From: Brucella oryzae
Lineage (GTDB): Bacteria; Pseudomonadota; Alphaproteobacteria; Rhizobiales; Rhizobiaceae
Direction of reading: 5' to 3'
DNA length: 64,000 nucleotides
Assembly: GCA_012103035.1 (NCBI GenBank)
Contig: JAAVLL010000002.1
Span: 434,001-498,000, forward strand
Within the stretch, counting starts at the first letter, position 1; every line of letters starts with the position of its first letter. Below are positions 48,055 through 55,271 of this stretch, one piece after another. The translations under genes and the position numbers were made by a program. Under the pieces are notes generated by a model. The model ran no database searches and was not told the origin of the DNA. It saw only the letters and a list, made by a program, of their open reading frames with translations.

Positions 48055-48076
48055 AAAGGCCGGTTTCCCGGCCTTT
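48055..48076. terminator. Terminator hairpin, left copy flanking miniature element A
   Basis: Nine-base arms AAAGGCCGG / CCGGCCTTT around TTTC. It ends the VOC gene 2 bp after its stop and is duplicated exactly at 48215-48236 on the other side of the inserted element. Confidence 0.85.
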
Positions 48077-48214
48077 CAGGCTGCTGACAAACCTCCGGCA
48101 GGGTCAAAATGACCTCAGATTCACGGAACGTCCCAGATTCAGAACGTGAACAAATCGGAATCAAAACCCTCGTTTTGACTGCTTCCAAAAATCGAGGGGT
48201 TTGTAATCAATCTG
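48077..48214 (+). mobile_element. MITE-like element, copy A (138 bp)
   Basis: The ends are 17-bp imperfect inverted repeats: CAGGCTGCTGACAAACC on the left and, read inward from the right, CAGATTGATTACAAACC (13 of 17 match). An internal hairpin with CCCTCG / CGAGGGG arms occupies the right third. It has no coding capacity. The whole element recurs inverted at 54047-54186, differing only by one C and one T missing from homopolymers in this copy. Both copies are flanked by duplicated terminator hairpins, implying transposition into terminators with ~22-bp target duplication. It may belong to the class of Brucella repeats called Bru-RS, which I cannot verify. Confidence 0.75.
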
Positions 48215-48236
48215 AAAGGCCGGTTTCCCGGCCTTT
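48215..48236. terminator. Terminator hairpin, right copy flanking miniature element A
   Basis: Identical in all 22 bases to 48055-48076. It now terminates the convergent M3 peptidase gene, whose stop is at 48241. Confidence 0.85.
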
Positions 48237-48240
48237 GTTC

Positions 48241-50286
48241 TTAGTTCAATCCACGCTTTTCGATCATCGCGTCCGGTGTCGGCATCTTACCGCGGAAGGC
48301 CTTGTAAAGTTCTTCCGGGTCGCGGCTGCCGCCAGCGGCATAGATATGCTGTTTCAGCTTTGCCGCCAGTTCCGGATTGAAGGCGTCGCCGGTCTCCTCG
48401 AAGGCCGAGAAAGCGTCCGCGTCCAGCACTTCCGACCACATGTAGGAATAGTAACCTGCGGAATAACCGTCGCCGGAGAAGACGTGGGTAAAATGCGGTG
48501 TGCGATGGCGCATGATGATCGCATCCGGCATGGAAAGCTTTGCAAGCGTCTGTGTTTCAAAAGCCAGCGGATCAGTGATCTTTTCCTTACCGGTATGGAA
48601 TGCCATGTCGACCAGTGCGGACGAGGTGAACTCGACCGTGTTGAAGCCAGCATTGAAGGTACGCGCGGCAAGTACCTTGTCGAGGAGCGCCTTCGGCATG
48701 GCCTCGCCAGTGCGGTAGTGCACGGCATATTTTTCGAGAACGGCCGGGACGGTCAACCAGTGTTCGTAAAGCTGCGACGGCAGTTCCACGAAATCGCGCG
48801 AAACGGCAGTGCCGGAAATGGCAGGCCATGTCACATCCGACAGAAGCCCATGCAGCGCATGGCCGAATTCGTGGAACAGCGTGCGCGCATCATCAAGCGA
48901 GAGCAGGGCAGGTTCATCAGCCTTTGGCTTCGCAAAATTCATGACGTTGTAAATGATCGGCTTCTGTCCGCCGTCAAGCTTGTGGCTCGATTGCAGGGCA
49001 CTCATCCATGCGCCAGAACGCTTTGAGGTACGCGCAAAATAGTCGCCAAGGAACAGGCCGCGTTCGCTGCCATCGGCATTGAACACCTGAAACACCCGCA
49101 CGTCCGGATGCCATGCTGCGATACCCTTTTTTCCTCGAAGCGGATACCGAACAGGCGGCCTGCGACGTCGAAGGCGGCTTCGATGATCTTTTCAAGTTGC
49201 AGATAAGGCTTCAGTTCCGCCTCATCGAAGGCGAAGCGCTCGGCGCGCAGCTTTTCGGCATAGAAGCGCCAGTCCCACGGTGCGACCTTGTGATTGCCGC
49301 CATCGGCTGTGATCAGGCGTTCCAGTTCGACCTCTTCTTCATGGGCCTTGGCGCGCGCCTTGTCCCAGACAGGCTCCAGCAGGTCCATGACCGCCTTCGG
49401 GTCTTGGCCATAGTGTCGTCGAGCTTGTAGGCTGCAAAGTTGGCGTAACCGAGCAGATGGGCCTTGCGCTCGCGCAGCTCACCATCTCGCGCACGATTTC
49501 GCGATTGTCGCTTTCGTCACCATTTTCACCGCGCTTTGCCCAGGCATTGAAAGCCTGTTCGCGCAGTTCGCGATTTTCGGCGAAGGAAAGGAATGGCTCG
49601 ACAATCGAGCGCGATAGCGTAACCGCCCAGGCATCCGGTTTGCCGCGTTCGGCAGCAGCACTCTGCATGGCGTTTTTCAGAAAGTCCGGCAGGCCGGCGA
49701 GGTCGGCTTCATCGGTGATGAACAAGGCCCAGCTCGATTCATCCTTCAGCACATTCTGCCCGAAACGGGCGCCAAGTCCCGCCAGCTTCTCATTGATGCC
49801 TGCAAGCTCCGTCTTGCCCGCCTCGTCGAGCTTTGCACCGGAACGGACGAAACCTTTCCACGTCTTTTCCAGAACGCGCTTGGTTTCGCTATCGAGGTCC
49901 AGCGTATCGCGATTTTCATAAAGCGCGTCAATGCGGGCGAAAAGTGCGGGATCCATCAAAATGCGCGAATAATGGCGCGACATCTTTGGCGCAATCTCGC
50001 GTTCCAGCGCCTGGATCGTGTTGTTGGTATGTGCGCCAGCACGCATCCAGAAAACCGCCGATACGCGGTCGAGCGCCTTGCCGGTCAGTTGCAGGGCTTT
50101 GAGCGTGTTGTCGATGGTCGCGTCATCTGCCGCCTTGGCGATGGCTTCCACTTCTGCGAGGTCTGCAGCCAGCGCGGCATCGAATGTAGATGCGAAATCG
50201 CCATCCTCAAAGGCGGTGAAATCCGGCAGGCCCAGCGGTCCGTTCCATTCAGTCAGCGCGTGGTTGTGGGTGGGCTTGTCGGACAT
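48241..50286 (-). CDS. M3-family oligopeptidase / peptidyl-dipeptidase (frameshifted)
   Basis: MSDKPTHNHALTEWNGPLGLPDFTAFEDGDFASTFDAAL begins at 50286. The zinc site LFHEFGHALHGLLSDV (HExxH) is near 48880, followed by RDFVELPSQLYEHWLT and a C-terminal YYSYMWSEVLDADAFSAFEETGD, all M3 features. Breaks near 49460, 49390 and 49125 need repair, giving ~683 residues. It hydrolyses short peptides in the cytoplasm. Monocistronic, convergent with the VOC gene across the miniature element. Confidence 0.9.
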
Positions 50287-50612
50287 GATGAAACTCCAGA
50301 TCAAATGAATTTGGTATGAACCAGACTTAAGATTTAGAAAGCGGGCGGGCAAGAGGTTCACGACATTGAAGACTGCTTTCGGGAAAAAGCGTTCGACATT
50401 GCCTTGCGGGGCTTGACTTTGTTGGCGACCCAGCGCACATCACGCTCGCAGCCGGATTTCTGCGGCAGCAATTTCAACCGGAGTTTTATTCTCTTATGCC
50501 AAGCGACAGTCACAGTCGATTGTTTCAGCCGTCAAGGCAGTTCGTGATCTGATCGCTCGCGGTCGGCTTGCACGGTCTGCCTTCGACGGCGGATCGACAG
50601 AAAGGCAAGCCC
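50287..50612. other. Divergent promoter region between peptidase and mgtE
   Basis: About 325 bp between divergent starts. No ORF, repeat or recognised Mg-responsive leader (M-box-like) could be discerned. Confidence 0.35.
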
Positions 50613-51995
50613 ATGACCGACAACAACTTCTTCCCGGAAGTACTCAATGTTGCCGACCTCCCTGCTGCAGCCATCGCAAGCCGCATTGCGGACATGCGTA
50701 CTGGCGACGCAGTGGAACTCGTTAACGAACTCGATGCCGATGATGCAGTCGCCGTCATCGCACAGCTTTCGCATGACGATGCCATCCGTCTGCTCGACCA
50801 GCCGGAACTGCACCGTGCTACCGAAATCATTGCTACCCTCCCACCCGGCCTTGCAAGCCTTCTACTTGACGGCATGTCGGCGGACCGTGCAACCGACGTT
50901 TTTCAGGAGCTGGACGACGACGACCGGGCGCGCCTGTTTCCTATTCTCGCGCCTGAAACCAAAGCTGCGCTGAAAAGCTGATGGGCTATCCGCCGAATAC
51001 GGCAGGCTCGCTCATGACCATCGAATTCATCGCTGTGCCTTCCAACTGGAATGTCGGTCAGACGCTGGAGCATATCCGCAAGGTCGAGCGCACTCGCGAG
51101 ACGGTTTATGCCATCTATGTGGTCGATCCGGTCAGCCGCGTTTTGTTGGGCGTGGTCAGCCTGCGTCGCCTCATCATCCGCCAGCCGGACGAGCCGATCC
51201 TGTCGATTGCGCGGGAAGACGATCCGATCACCATTTCGCCGCTGGCGAGCCGCGAGGAAGTGGCGCGCCTGTTCCGCAAGCACGACCTTCTGGCCGTACC
51301 TGTCGTGGACGAAAGCCGCCACATCATCGGCATTGTGACCGTCGATGACGTGCTCGACGCGATGACGGAAGAGGCAAGCGAGGACGCTTACCGTTTCGGT
51401 GGCATGGAGGCGCTGGACAAGCCCTATATGCGCATCGGCTTCGGCGAGATGCTGAAAAGCGCGCTGGCTGGCTCGGTATCCTTTTCCTCGGTGAGATGCT
51501 GACCGCAAGCGCGATGCAGCATTTCGAGCTGGAGCTAGAAAAGGCGCTGGTGCTGACATTGTTCATCCCGCTCATCATGTCGTCGGGTGGTAATTCCGGC
51601 TCGCAGGCAACGTCGCTGATTATTCGCGCGCTTGCCTTGCAGGAACTCAAGCTCAAGGACTGGTGGCGTGTCGCCTTCCGCGAATTGCCAACGGACTGGC
51701 GCTTGGCAGCTTCCTCGGCCTGATCGGCATCATACGCATCGCCATCTGGCAGACGCTCGGCATATACGATTATGGCGAACACTGGATTCTTGTGGCTTCA
51801 ACCGTTGGCATGGCGCTGGTCTGCATCGTGACTTTCGGCTCGCTGACAGGCTCCATGCTGCCGTTTATTCTGCAAAGGCTCGGCTTCGACCCGGCGAGCG
51901 CTTCGGCGCCATTTGTGGCAACCCTGGTCGATGTTACCGGCCTCGTGATCTATTTCAGCGTCGCGCTGGTCATCCTCTCAGGTACGCTTTTGTAA
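50613..51995 (+). CDS. mgtE: MgtE magnesium transporter (frameshifted)
   Basis: The N-domain has MgtE helical repeats ([45 protein letters not shown]). After a break near 50975 come [18 protein letters not shown], two CBS domains ([50 protein letters not shown]) and, after breaks near 51475 and 51690, the membrane domain with [24 protein letters not shown] (pore motif GGNSGxQ) and [38 protein letters not shown]. ~460 residues. It imports Mg2+ across the inner membrane, gated by cytosolic Mg2+ binding to the N and CBS domains. Confidence 0.92.
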
Positions 51996-52181
51996 CAAGC
52001 GCGACAAAAACTGTCAGATTGACAGTGTAGAGAAGCGGTGAAAACAAGGTTTTCTTGGTCAAATGAGGGGTAGTTTCGCGCTGCCCCTTTCTAAAACGCA
52101 AAAACCTGTAAGAGCGGCGCATTGTTTTTCCGCGCACCCAATGCTGGCGCGGCTCCCAACTCATATAGAAGTGATCTCCAT

Positions 52182-54008
52182 ATGGAATTGCGTAATATCG
52201 CTATTATCGCACACGTCGATCATGGCAAAACAACACTGGTTGATGAACTTTTGAAGCAGGCCGGCTCGTTCCGCGAGAACCAGCGCGTCGGCGAACGCAT
52301 GATGGATTCCGGTGATATCGAGCGCGAGCGTGGGATCACCATTCTCGCCAAGGCCACTTCGGTTGTCTGGAAAAATACGCGTATCAACATTGTCGACACG
52401 CCGGGCCACGCCGACTTTGGCGGTGAAGTTGAGCGTATCCTCTCGATGGTCGACGGTGCGATTGTGCTTGTCGATTCTGCTGAAGGCCCGATGCCACAGA
52501 CGAAGTTCGTCGTCGGCAAGGCGCTGAAAGTTGGCTTGAAGCCAATCGTTGCGATCAACAAGATCGACCGTCCGGATGGCCGTCACGAGGAAGTCGTCAA
52601 CGAAGTGTTCGACCTTTTCGCTAATCTCGACGCAACCGACGAACAGCTCGACTTCCCGATCCTCTACGGTTCGGGCCGTAACGGCTGGATGGCACTGAAC
52701 CCGGAAGGCCCGCAGGACGAAGGTCTGGCTCCGCTGTTCGACCTCGTGCTCAAGCACGTTCCGGCACCGAAGGTTGCCGAAGGCCCGTTCCGCATGATCG
52801 GTACGATCCTCGAAGCAGATCCGTTTCTTGGCCGCATCATCACGGGCCGTATCCATTCCGGCTCGATCAAGTCGAACCAGGCCGTCAAGGTTCTCGGCCA
52901 AGATGGTTCGCTACTCGAAACCGGTCGCATCTCGAAGATTCTCGCATTCCGCGGCATCGAGCGTCAGGCCATTGATGAAGCACAGGCAGGCGACATCGTC
53001 GCTATTGCCGGTCTTTCCAAGGGCACCGTCGCCGACACGTTCTGCGATCCTTCGGTCAGCGAGCCTCTGGCTGCGCAGCCAATCGATCCGCCGACCGTGA
53101 CCATGTCCTTCATCGTCAATGACAGCCCTTATGCAGGCACCGAGGGCGACAAGGTGACAAGCCGCGTCATCCGCGACCGTCTGCTGAAAGAAGCCGAAGG
53201 CAATGTCGCGCTCAAGATTGAGGAATCGACCGAGAAGGATTCCTTCTTCGTGTCCGGTCGCGGTGAATTGCAACTTGCGGTTCTGATCGAAAACATGCGT
53301 CGCGAAGGCTTCGAGCTTGGCGTTTCGCGTCCGCGCGTCGTCATGAAGGACGGCGAGAACGGTGAAAAGCTGGAGCCGGTGGAAGAAGTCGTCATCGACG
53401 TTGATGAAGAATATTCCGGCACGGTCGTGCAGAAGATGTCCGAGCGCAAGGCCGAAATGGTCGAACTGCGTCCTTCGGGCGGCAATCGCGTGCGTCTGGT
53501 GTTCTATGCTCCGACCCGCGGCCTTATCGGCTATCAGTCGGAACTTTTGACCGATACGCGCGGCACGGCGATCATGAACCGCCTGTTCCATGATTATCAG
53601 CCATACAAGGGTGAAATCGCTGGCCGCAACAACGGCGTTCTGATTTCCAACGATCAGGGTGAAGCGGTTGCCTACGCACTGTTCAACCTTGAAGATCGTG
53701 GGCCGATGATCATCGACGCTGGCGTCAAGGTCTATCAGGGCATGCTTATCGGCATTCACAGTCGCGACAACGATCTGGAAGTGAATGTTTTGAAAGGCAA
53801 GAAGCTCACGAACGTTCGTGCCGCCGGTAAGGATGAAGCCGTGAAGCTGACCCCGCCGATCAGGATGACGCTGGAACGCGCTTTGTCGTGGATTCAGGAT
53901 GACGAGCTGGTTGAAGTGACGCCGAAGTCGATCCGTCTTCGCAAGCTCTATCTTGATCCGAATGAGCGCAAGCGCTTTGAAAAGAGCAAGTCGTCGAGCG
54001 CTGCATAA
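52182..54008 (+). CDS. typA: Translational GTPase TypA/BipA
   Basis: Intact at 608 residues from ATG 52182 ([29 protein letters not shown]1). G2/G3 are ERGITI and [13 protein letters not shown]4 is NKIDRPD. The C-terminal part carries the BipA-specific [35 protein letters not shown] and [16 protein letters not shown]. It is a ribosome-binding GTPase for assembly and stress or low-temperature growth. The longer frame to 52122 lacks homology and an RBS. The 3' terminator carries an inserted miniature element. Confidence 0.95.
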
Positions 54009-54026
54009 GCCCGACAGAATAAAGAA

Positions 54027-54046
54027 ACGGCGCCTTCGGGCGCCGT
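54027..54046. terminator. Terminator hairpin, left copy flanking miniature element B
   Basis: Eight-base arms ACGGCGCC / GGCGCCGT around TTCG, 18 bp after the typA stop. It corresponds to the 22-nt copy at 54187-54208, differing by one T and one G in homopolymers. Confidence 0.8.
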
Positions 54047-54186
54047 CAGATTGATTACAAACCCCTCGATTTTTGGAAGCAGTCAAAAACGAGGGGTTTT
54101 GATTCCGATTTGTTCACGTTCTGAATCTGGGACGTTCCGTGAATCTGAGGTCATTTTGACCCTGCCGGAGGTTTGTCAGCAGCCTG
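54047..54186 (-). mobile_element. MITE-like element, copy B (140 bp, inverted relative to copy A)
   Basis: The reverse complement matches 48077-48214 at every position except two homopolymers that are one base longer here (CCCC and TTTTT). It therefore probably represents the correct sequence. The internal palindrome CCCCTCG / CGAGGGG is better preserved. It sits between duplicated typA terminator hairpins. No ORF. Confidence 0.75.
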
Positions 54187-54208
54187 ACGGCGCCTTTCGG
54201 GGCGCCGT
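54187..54208. terminator. Terminator hairpin, right copy flanking miniature element B
   Basis: ACGGCGCC / GGCGCCGT arms around TTTCGG, followed by TTTT. It duplicates the typA terminator at 54027-54046. Confidence 0.8.
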
Positions 54209-54223
54209 TTTGTTTGGATATTC

Positions 54224-54326
54224 TTAGAGCGGTTCCTATCTTATCAGGATCGCCGGATCCGCTCTAACTATTTGTTTTGTCGCATTTTCCAACGCAAAGC
54301 CGTTTCACACTTTTGCTGGAAATGCT
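54224..54326. repeat. Rhizobiales-type RIME-like intergenic repeat
   Basis: TTAGAGCGG at 54224 and CCGCTCTAA near 54260 form one hairpin. The rest (GTTTTGTCGCATTTTCCAAC ... GCTGGAAATGCTC) forms a second. This two-hairpin unit resembles the RIME-type elements common in Rhizobiales, and a relative is at 61697-61801. The stop codon of the following permease gene lies at the repeat edge. Confidence 0.6.
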
Positions 54327-55271
54327 CTACCGCTCGCCGCGACGATAGGGCTGCATCAGCGCCTGCGGAACACGTGCGCGCCGCGCCATGACGATGAGCG
54401 CCACAATCGACATGATGTAAGGGATCATCAGGAAGAGCTGGTAAGGCACGACCTTGCCGTAAACCGTTTGCAGGCGTAGCTGGAAAGCATCGAACAGCGC
54501 GAACAGAAGCGCGCCCAGAAGTGCGCGTGCAGGCTTCCACGACGCGAAGACGACGAGCGCAATACAGACCCACCCGCGCCCCTGCATCATCGTCGGGAAG
54601 AACGAATTGAAGGCAGAGAGCGTGAGGAACGCGCCGCCCACCGCCATCAGTGCGCTGCCGAACATGATCGTGAAGATGCGCACCCGGATAGGGTTGATGC
54701 CTTGCGCTTCCGCGGCATGTGGATTTTCGCCTGTCATGCGGATGGCAAGGCCGAGCGGCGTGCGGAAAAGCACATAACCAAGCAGCAGTGCCAGAGGAAT
54801 GGCGATCCACGTGAGCGCCGTTTGCGTGCCAAGCACCTGTCCGACGAACGGGATATCTGCAAGCCAGGACGGATTGACCGGCTGGAATGGTGTGATCGTC
54901 GGTGGTGTTGAAGAAAGCGGTACGAGAAGGCGAAACAGGAAATAGCTGAGGCTCGATGCAAACAGTGTGATGCCGAGGCCGACGACATGCTGCGACAGGC
55001 CAAGCGGCACGGTGAGGGCTGCATGAAGCAGGCCGAACACGGCGCCGGAAGCAGCCGCCGCGAGCACGCCCACCCAGAGGTCTGCGCCATTATAGACGGT
55101 CAGCCAGCCAATCATCGCGCCAAAGGTCATGATGCCTTCGATGCCGAGATTAAGCACGCCCGCCCGTTCGCAATAAAGTGCGCCGAGCGTGCCGAAGATC
55201 AGCGGCGTTGCAATGCGCAGGACCGAGACCCAGAGGCCAGCGGAGAGCAGGATATCCATCAACTCATTCAT
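54327..55271 (-). CDS. Nucleoside-type (BMP) ABC transporter permease 2
   Basis: Intact at 314 residues with about eight transmembrane helices. It begins MNELMDILLSAGLWVSVLRIATPLIFGTLGALYCERAGVLNLGIEGIMTFGAM, the hallmark of YufQ/NupQ-type permeases. It belongs to the BMP-family transporter operon with permease 1, the duplicated ATPase and the periplasmic protein. It overlaps the preceding permease stop (ATGA). Confidence 0.9.
   Translation of the reverse strand: MNELMDILLSAGLWVSVLRIATPLIFGTLGALYCERAGVLNLGIEGIMTFGAMIGWLTVYNGADLWVGVLAAAASGAVFGLLHAALTVPLGLSQHVVGLGITLFASSLSYFLFRLLVPLSSTPPTITPFQPVNPSWLADIPFVGQVLGTQTALTWIAIPLALLLGYVLFRTPLGLAIRMTGENPHAAEAQGINPIRVRIFTIMFGSALMAVGGAFLTLSAFNSFFPTMMQGRGWVCIALVVFASWKPARALLGALLFALFDAFQLRLQTVYGKVVPYQLFLMIPYIMSIVALIVMARRARVPQALMQPYRRGER

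What the first reader, a model, noticed from the sequence alone, without database searches (positions are those of the whole stretch)
48055..54208. A miniature element inserted twice into Rho-independent terminators, duplicating the whole hairpin
Seen directly: a 138-140 bp non-coding unit occurs at 48077-48214 and, inverted, at 54047-54186, with 17-bp imperfect terminal inverted repeats (13 of 17 match). Copy A is flanked by two identical 22-nt hairpins. Copy B is flanked by a different hairpin, also duplicated (20 and 22 nt, differing by one base in two homopolymers). Because the two duplicated sequences differ from each other, they are target duplications, not part of the element. The target in both cases is a complete intrinsic terminator between convergent genes. 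Duplicating it leaves each neighbour its own terminator, so insertion is nearly cost-free. Terminator-seeking with a ~22-bp duplication is unusual; some IS families that prefer palindromic targets could be the mobilising source.
Basis: partly seen in the sequence, partly recalled or inferred. Interest (0 to 1): 0.78.

Follow-up and report, generated by a model that had tools for sequence, protein, structure and literature searches.

The report
Transposons that duplicate terminator hairpins
A tiny mobile DNA element and its full-sized parent insert themselves into the hairpins that end bacterial genes and copy the whole hairpin as they do so, apparently cutting where the hairpin begins and ends rather than at a fixed distance.

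Summary
The window's genome holds 31 copies of the ~139-bp element and 7 of a full IS1182-family IS sharing its left end. All 38 sit at predicted intrinsic-terminator hairpins; 27 of 38 have an exact hairpin-length duplication, and the other 11 fit point changes, small indels, one flipped loop and one inversion. Sister species show one hairpin at both window sites (47 of 58 loci, the rest uninformative). The end CAGACTGCTGACAAACCC abuts a stem-loop at 111 of 121 junctions in five bacterial classes. Remote IS1182 relatives with other ends show short duplications (4 bp in 12 of 23) and no hairpin. So this is a MITE of a terminator-targeting IS1182 subgroup, probably cutting at hairpin feet (inferred). 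Prior art: IS1272 hits terminators but deletes the hairpin; Yersinia YPAL repeats carry the same 18-bp end and have no transposase assigned in the texts I read. Correction: the hairpin nearest each gene loses most of its U-tract; the intact terminator is the far copy. New variant of a known kind.

The parts
48055..48076 (.). Left copy of duplicated terminator hairpin, site A (22 nt)
   Evidence: one hairpin at the empty site in sister species
48077..48214 (+). MITE copy A, CAGGCTGCTGACAAACC...GGTTTGTAATCAATCTG, 138 bp
48215..48236 (.). Right copy of duplicated terminator hairpin, site A (22 nt, identical)
54027..54046 (.). Left copy of terminator hairpin, site B (20 nt); its loop TTCG is also the commonest at the empty site in sister species
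54047..54186 (-). MITE copy B, inverted, 140 bp
54187..54208 (.). Right copy of terminator hairpin, site B (22 nt; two single-base additions)
48118..48122 (+). First of three GANTC (CcrM-type) sites in copy A, GATTC; the other two lie further along the element

Best explanation
The unit is a non-autonomous miniature element (MITE) mobilised by a subgroup of IS1182-family DDE transposases. Four near-identical copies of such an IS with full-length open frames, and three more with interrupted genes, lie in the same genome. The transposase joins both ends of the element to the two 5' feet of an intrinsic-terminator stem-loop, so repair duplicates the whole hairpin. Because the duplication is as long as each hairpin (18-26 bp where exact) rather than fixed, the cut sites are probably set by hairpin or cruciform geometry. 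Shown: hairpin duplication, single-hairpin empty sites, the shared left end of MITE and IS, and the split between hairpin and short duplications on the transposase tree. Inferred: movement of the MITE in trans, extrusion of the hairpin, and cutting at its feet.
For: 31 MITE and 7 IS copies, all at hairpins with outer A- and T-tracts, 38 of 38, against 6 of 18 other strong hairpins in the window. Exact duplication in 27 of 38; in 24 of those 27 the stem pairs start at the very ends of the duplication. Site A in sister species: in 17 of 29 loci the flanks overlap by 20-22 bp on one hairpin. IS in the same genome: model NF033551, 472.7 bits, cut-off 270; same left end and same kind of hairpin duplications. 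One IS copy bears the MITE's right end and abuts a MITE copy, giving hairpin-IS-hairpin-MITE-hairpin. The end CAGACTGCTGACAAACCC abuts a stem-loop above the 99th percentile of control positions at 111 of 121 junctions. The own IS and the three complete relatives at 76-87% identity all have hairpin duplications; plasmid copies in Rhizobium (19 bp), Acinetobacter towneri and Staphylococcus simulans (27 bp each) do too. Of 23 remote relatives (~30% identity) 12 have 4 bp and none a hairpin duplication. One change of state on the tree. Presumed catalytic D151, D281, E409 kept in 25, 24 and 25 of 25 relatives.
Against: No transposition was observed. The MITE's right end (GTAATCAATCTG) differs from that of 6 of the 7 IS copies (GTCAGCAGCCTG in five, a shortened GTCAGCCTG in one). 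Duplications at 11 of 38 copies are not exact. A relative on the hairpin side of the tree, ISEfa7 (L303), shows neither a duplication nor a left hairpin, and IS1272 is reported to delete the hairpin (PMC5678879, PMC4923244). Ten of 121 junctions lack a clear stem-loop, three of them in Yersinia. Of 48 ends with at least 250 bp of element-side sequence only 14 gave a repeat of the flanking hairpin downstream; many of the other 34 are cut by contig ends, and some have different hairpins at their two ends. Extrusion of the hairpin is not testable from sequence.
Confidence: 0.87

Rival explanations
1. Same MITE and IS, but the transposase reads double-stranded sequence (A, G+C-rich palindrome, T) with a flexible dimer, not an extruded hairpin.
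For: Exact duplications begin with A in 26 of 27 and end with T in 23 of 27, so there is a weak sequence signature at the cut.
Against: Exact duplication length runs from 18 to 26 bp and follows the hairpin; by eye the targets share no core sequence.
Confidence: 0.3
2. Insertion is close to random between genes, and selection leaves only copies at terminators.
For: Terminators are tolerant places; 32 of 38 copies lie near a gene ending toward them.
Against: Selection cannot place both cuts at the hairpin's feet, and none of the 38 copies lies in other intergenic DNA.
Confidence: 0.03
3. The hairpins belong to the element: a larger repeat with hairpin ends.
For: Every copy is bracketed by hairpins.
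Against: Each site has its own hairpin, and sister species without the element keep one hairpin there.
Confidence: 0.01

Closest known systems
IS1272 / TnSha1 (IS1182 family, staphylococci)
   Same: Same transposase family; targets hairpins without sequence consensus, five of seven TnSha1 sites confirmed as terminators by RNA-seq (PMC4923244, passages; PMC5678879, abstract, passages and two sections).
   Different: Those insertions delete all or part of the hairpin and make no duplication. Whole-hairpin duplication appears there as pathway b of a model (PMC5678879, Discussion part 1 with the Fig 13 legend).
YPAL / RU-2 (Yersinia MITE, 167-168 bp)
   Same: Begins with the same 18-bp end: the first 44 letters of the RU-2 sequence (from CAG) printed in PMC2759123 Table 1b match nine Yersinia loci found here at 38 to 44 of 44. 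A review passage reports duplications of 3-26 bp at or beside dyad symmetry (PMC2229807). Recalled, not read: the 2006 YPAL paper says many targets overlap terminators. Yersinia loci L220 and L232 show whole-hairpin duplications and L203 a weaker one, 3 of 7 Yersinia ends testable.
   Different: Interior sequence differs from the window's MITE. No transposase is assigned to it in the passages read. The two Yersinia genomes searched hold only fragments of an IS1182-like gene at E up to 0.001.
ISCfr1 / ISShsp2 branch of IS1182
   Same: Same family and presumed DDE residues.
   Different: Ends of the type GATTCTGTTGAAAAA; 4- to 6-bp duplications; no hairpin.
Bru-RS and CIR repeats of alphaproteobacteria
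   Same: Short non-coding repeats; CIR also bears GANTC (PMC2229807 passages).
   Different: The 105-bp repeat beside copy B matches elsewhere as a block separate from the MITE. The MITE's core pattern, 1 mismatch allowed, was found in 2 of 387 genomes of the class, one of them the window's own. No named Bru-RS or CIR sequence was compared.

Membership tests
IS1182 family (the full IS in this genome) | Transposase passes the curated IS1182 model | tested here: met
   NF033551 472.7 bits, cut-off 270
IS1182 family (the full IS in this genome) | DDE residues kept | tested here: met
   D151, D281, E409 in 25, 24, 25 of 25 aligned relatives; that these are the catalytic residues is inferred
MITE of that IS | Short, no gene, terminal inverted repeats shared with an IS in the same genome | tested here: met
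   Left end CAG[AG]CTGCTGACAAACC shared; right end identical in one IS copy (L047/L269) and different in the other six
MITE of that IS | Moved in trans by the IS transposase | not testable with these tools
   needs a transposition assay
IS1272-type stem-loop replacement | Hairpin deleted on insertion, no duplication | tested here: not met
   hairpin duplicated, not deleted
YPAL family | Sequence similarity over the 167-bp element | tested here: not met
   End shared; interiors differ by eye
Bru-RS repeats | ~103-105-bp palindromic repeat sequence | tested here: inconclusive
   The 105-bp repeat next to copy B matches as a separate block; no named Bru-RS sequence was compared

The most novel reading that the evidence does not exclude
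A whole branch of IS1182-family transposases recognises DNA shape, an extruded terminator hairpin, so the length of the target duplication is written by the target and not by the enzyme. It also moves, or once moved, orphan MITEs such as YPAL in distant bacteria. In alphaproteobacteria its start region carries an invariant GATTC, which may tie transposase expression to CcrM methylation after replication, as Dam does for IS10 (recalled).
Probability: 0.4. Interest if true: 0.78.

Novelty: new variant of a known kind. Interest (0 to 1): 0.62.

Why it matters
DDE transposases normally leave a duplication of nearly fixed length. Here it varies with the hairpin, which gives a natural test of structure-guided target choice. 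The shared end offers a concrete candidate for what moves YPAL, a question left open in the review passages I read. It also shows how a transposon family can reach dozens of copies while sparing coding DNA, yet probably lengthening and overlapping the 3' ends of neighbouring transcripts.

Tried and rejected
Random insertion plus selection, and hairpins as part of the element, were rejected (see rivals). A general GANTC role in such MITEs is not supported: six copies of other alphaproteobacterial MITEs, from three kinds, have no GANTC, although the window's MITE averages 2.9 against 0.23 expected. Spread of the MITE core through the class: 2 of 387 genomes, so a link to CIR was dropped. Rfam gave two sub-threshold hits. 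No solved structure resembles the transposase by sequence at E up to 0.1. The decayed IS1182 fragments in Yersinia (L315, L316) showed no recognisable element end. No structure prediction was run, and ISfinder is not among the tools.

Rows dropped or labelled before counts: 3 of 124 pattern matches with under 35 nt of flank. The IS copy at L051/L267 was taken as a contig-end duplicate of L050/L266 because its flanks are the same. A diverged IS1182-like remnant at C2:353-355 kb (L052) was left out of the 7 and its ends were not found. Five one-mismatch core hits were not looked at. 10 of 76 hairpin sides could not be measured. In the tree, L138 was labelled hairpin-duplicating although its two hairpins differ, and L278 (5 bp) and L305 (4 or 6 bp) were labelled 4-bp. 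In one search the remote locus L277 gave a 44-bp repeat with poor ends, not examined further.

Full report
WHAT IS THERE. Both copies and their duplicated hairpins are exactly where the finding puts them. The window lies in an unnamed 4.86-Mb genome that holds 31 full-length copies. A pattern search for the core gave 30 exact and 1 one-mismatch hit at the same places, plus one unrelated exact hit and five one-mismatch hits not looked at.

EVERY ANALYSED COPY IS AT A HAIRPIN. The flanks of all 31 are printed. The same genome has an IS1182-family IS at 7 distinct places. Six were paired with both ends (a seventh row there repeats one place because the contig's ends overlap); the last, L265, whose left end is short by a few bases, was read. 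All seven lie between copies of a hairpin. In 27 of 38 the direct repeat is exact, 18-26 bp long; in 24 of the 27 the stem pairs from the very ends of the repeat. Allowing 2 mismatches, 33 of the 37 scored qualify. The four that do not are explained: copy B of the window (L015) has two one-base additions; L013 has the same stem with its loop reverse-complemented in one copy; L005 and L023 have exchanged flanks.

THE EXCHANGED FLANKS ARE AN INVERSION. L005 and L023 are inverted copies 3.6 kb apart. In sister genomes such as G213, G228, G204 and G214 the segment between them runs opposite to both outer flanks. So two single-hairpin targets were hit and the segment later inverted, I infer by recombination between the copies.

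EMPTY SITES. At site A, 29 sister loci were examined. In 17 the two flanks overlap by 20-22 bp on one hairpin. In 10 more one hairpin is visible by eye but the flanks have diverged. Two are uninformative. At site B, 20 of 29 show one hairpin by eye in the printed stretch and 9 had one flank only. None showed two tandem hairpins. In the search of 34 sister genomes the MITE itself was matched in one, G119 (at most 10 candidates scored per genome).

TERMINATORS, NOT JUST PALINDROMES. All 38 elements have an A-rich tract before the left hairpin and a T-rich tract after the right one; of 18 other strong hairpins in the window, 6 have both by a similar loose rule. By a crude gene call, 32 of 38 have a gene ending toward the element (median 37.5 bp), and 16 of 38 lie between convergent genes. 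Termination itself was not tested.

WHAT INSERTION DOES TO TERMINATION. Facing the element, the hairpin has 2.5 T in 8 nt on average; facing outward, 5.5. Four or more T: 6 of 66 against 62 of 66 measurable sides, of 76. I infer that transcripts read through the near hairpin and the element and end at the far copy, so convergent neighbours gain overlapping 3' ends.

THE MACHINERY. The IS gene is IS1182 family; four copies have full-length open frames and are 99-100% alike. The MITE shares its left end. One IS copy carries the MITE's right end and touches a MITE copy, with the same hairpin three times: a serial insertion into a hairpin already duplicated.

RELATIVES OF THE MITE. In 199 genomes of the family, 7 including the window's own had a match (at most 4 candidates scored per genome), and 2 of 72,556 plasmid records, Paracoccus and Neorhizobium. 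By eye most of these, and two elements with a similar core in G738, also lie between hairpin copies. The two partial matches differ: the one in G178 lies beside the start of an IS1182 copy (L036), and the one in G073 has other ends (L037).

BREADTH. Of 121 junctions with enough flank, 111 carry a stem-loop at the junction above the 99th percentile of control positions, 20 per junction, from the same loci: 80 of 85 in Alpha-, 17 of 21 in Gamma- (three misses are Yersinia), 7 of 7 in Betaproteobacteria, 6 of 7 in Clostridia, 1 of 1 in Desulfovibrionia. Many loci are contig ends, so both sides could rarely be seen: 14 of 48 ends with 250 bp or more of element side gave the matching hairpin downstream, among them short elements of about 167-208 bp in Yersinia, Martelella and others; 3 of the 7 Yersinia ends tested did so. 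Some elements have a different hairpin at each end (L130, L138, L174, L190), as recombination between copies would give.

A SPLIT IN THE FAMILY. Of the 30 loci, the window genome's own IS and the three complete relatives at 76-87% identity have hairpin duplications of 21-26 bp; of 23 remote relatives 12 have 4 bp and none a hairpin duplication; the remaining 3 loci are partial copies. Named plasmid copies agree: Rhizobium 19 bp, Acinetobacter towneri 27 bp, Staphylococcus simulans 27 bp; ISShsp2 4 bp and ISCfr1 4 or 6 bp without hairpins; ISEfa7 none. On a tree of 31 transposases the rows with short duplications form one side of a branch (95/99), the hairpin rows with ISEfa7 and L309 lie on the other side (100/100), and one change separates the two states.

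MECHANISM. A duplication as long as the hairpin and ending at its feet is what pathway b of the IS1272 model predicts (PMC5678879, Discussion part 1). In an extruded hairpin the two feet lie together whatever its length, so a fixed active-site spacing suffices. This step is inference.

WHAT IS KNOWN. IS1272/TnSha1 targets terminators but deletes all or part of the hairpin (PMC4923244, passages; PMC5678879, abstract, passages and two sections). YPAL/RU-2 of Yersinia makes 3-26-bp duplications at or beside dyad symmetry (PMC2229807, passages). The RU-2 sequence printed in PMC2759123 (passages) begins with the same end; its first 44 letters from CAG match nine Yersinia loci at 38 to 44 of 44. PMC2229807 says that movement of such repeats by transposases had no experimental support. 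My searches for IS1182 with terminators, palindromes or stem-loops, for YPAL, for terminator duplication and for Ochrobactrum MITEs showed, in titles, starts of abstracts and the passages I opened, no observed whole-terminator duplication by an IS1182 element and no link of YPAL to IS1182. I did not open most of the listed papers, and subscription papers, including probably the 2006 YPAL paper (the DOI tried was from memory), were not held.

A SIDE LEAD. Of 129 ends examined, 42 show the transposase start motif, and all 42 have GATTC, though the pattern allowed other isoleucine codons; elsewhere in nine of these genes ATT is 24 of 177 isoleucine codons. Of the 42, 36 are Alphaproteobacteria by record title and 6 are loci without a class label. 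Many come from the same species, so they are not 42 independent events. GANTC is the CcrM site (PMC2229807). Against a general role: other alphaproteobacterial MITEs lack it.

Noticed in passing
L270 (G000 C1:1762000-1772000): A 3.6-kb segment inverted between two inverted MITE copies relative to sister species; the terminator hairpins are exchanged between the two copies.
   Followed up: yes
L013 (G000 C1:1756943-1757083): The two hairpin copies have the same stem but reverse-complementary loops (GAATA and TATTC); a flipped hairpin, possibly a trace of extrusion or of later template switching.
   Followed up: no
L116 and other IS ends, offset 40 of the element; window MITE copies: Invariant GATTC at the transposase start in 42 of 42 ends with the start motif, and three GANTC sites in 28 of 31 MITE copies: possible link to CcrM methylation.
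   Followed up: partly
window 54225-54330: A different ~105-bp repeat beside copy B, with many copies across the genus and a sub-threshold match to Brucella sRNA CI153; probably the Bru-RS repeat (recalled).
   Followed up: partly
L056 (sister genome G213, site A): The empty site A of this sister species has a repeat matching the 105-bp type shortly after the same terminator.
   Followed up: no
L190 (Clostridia metagenome contig): A 56-bp unit with both ends, between two different hairpins and next to another end: perhaps the smallest element of the kind.
   Followed up: no
G000 C1:10 kb and C1:2505 kb: Contig C1 seems to repeat itself at its two ends (same IS copy with same flanks), so copy counts there must not be doubled.
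   Followed up: partly
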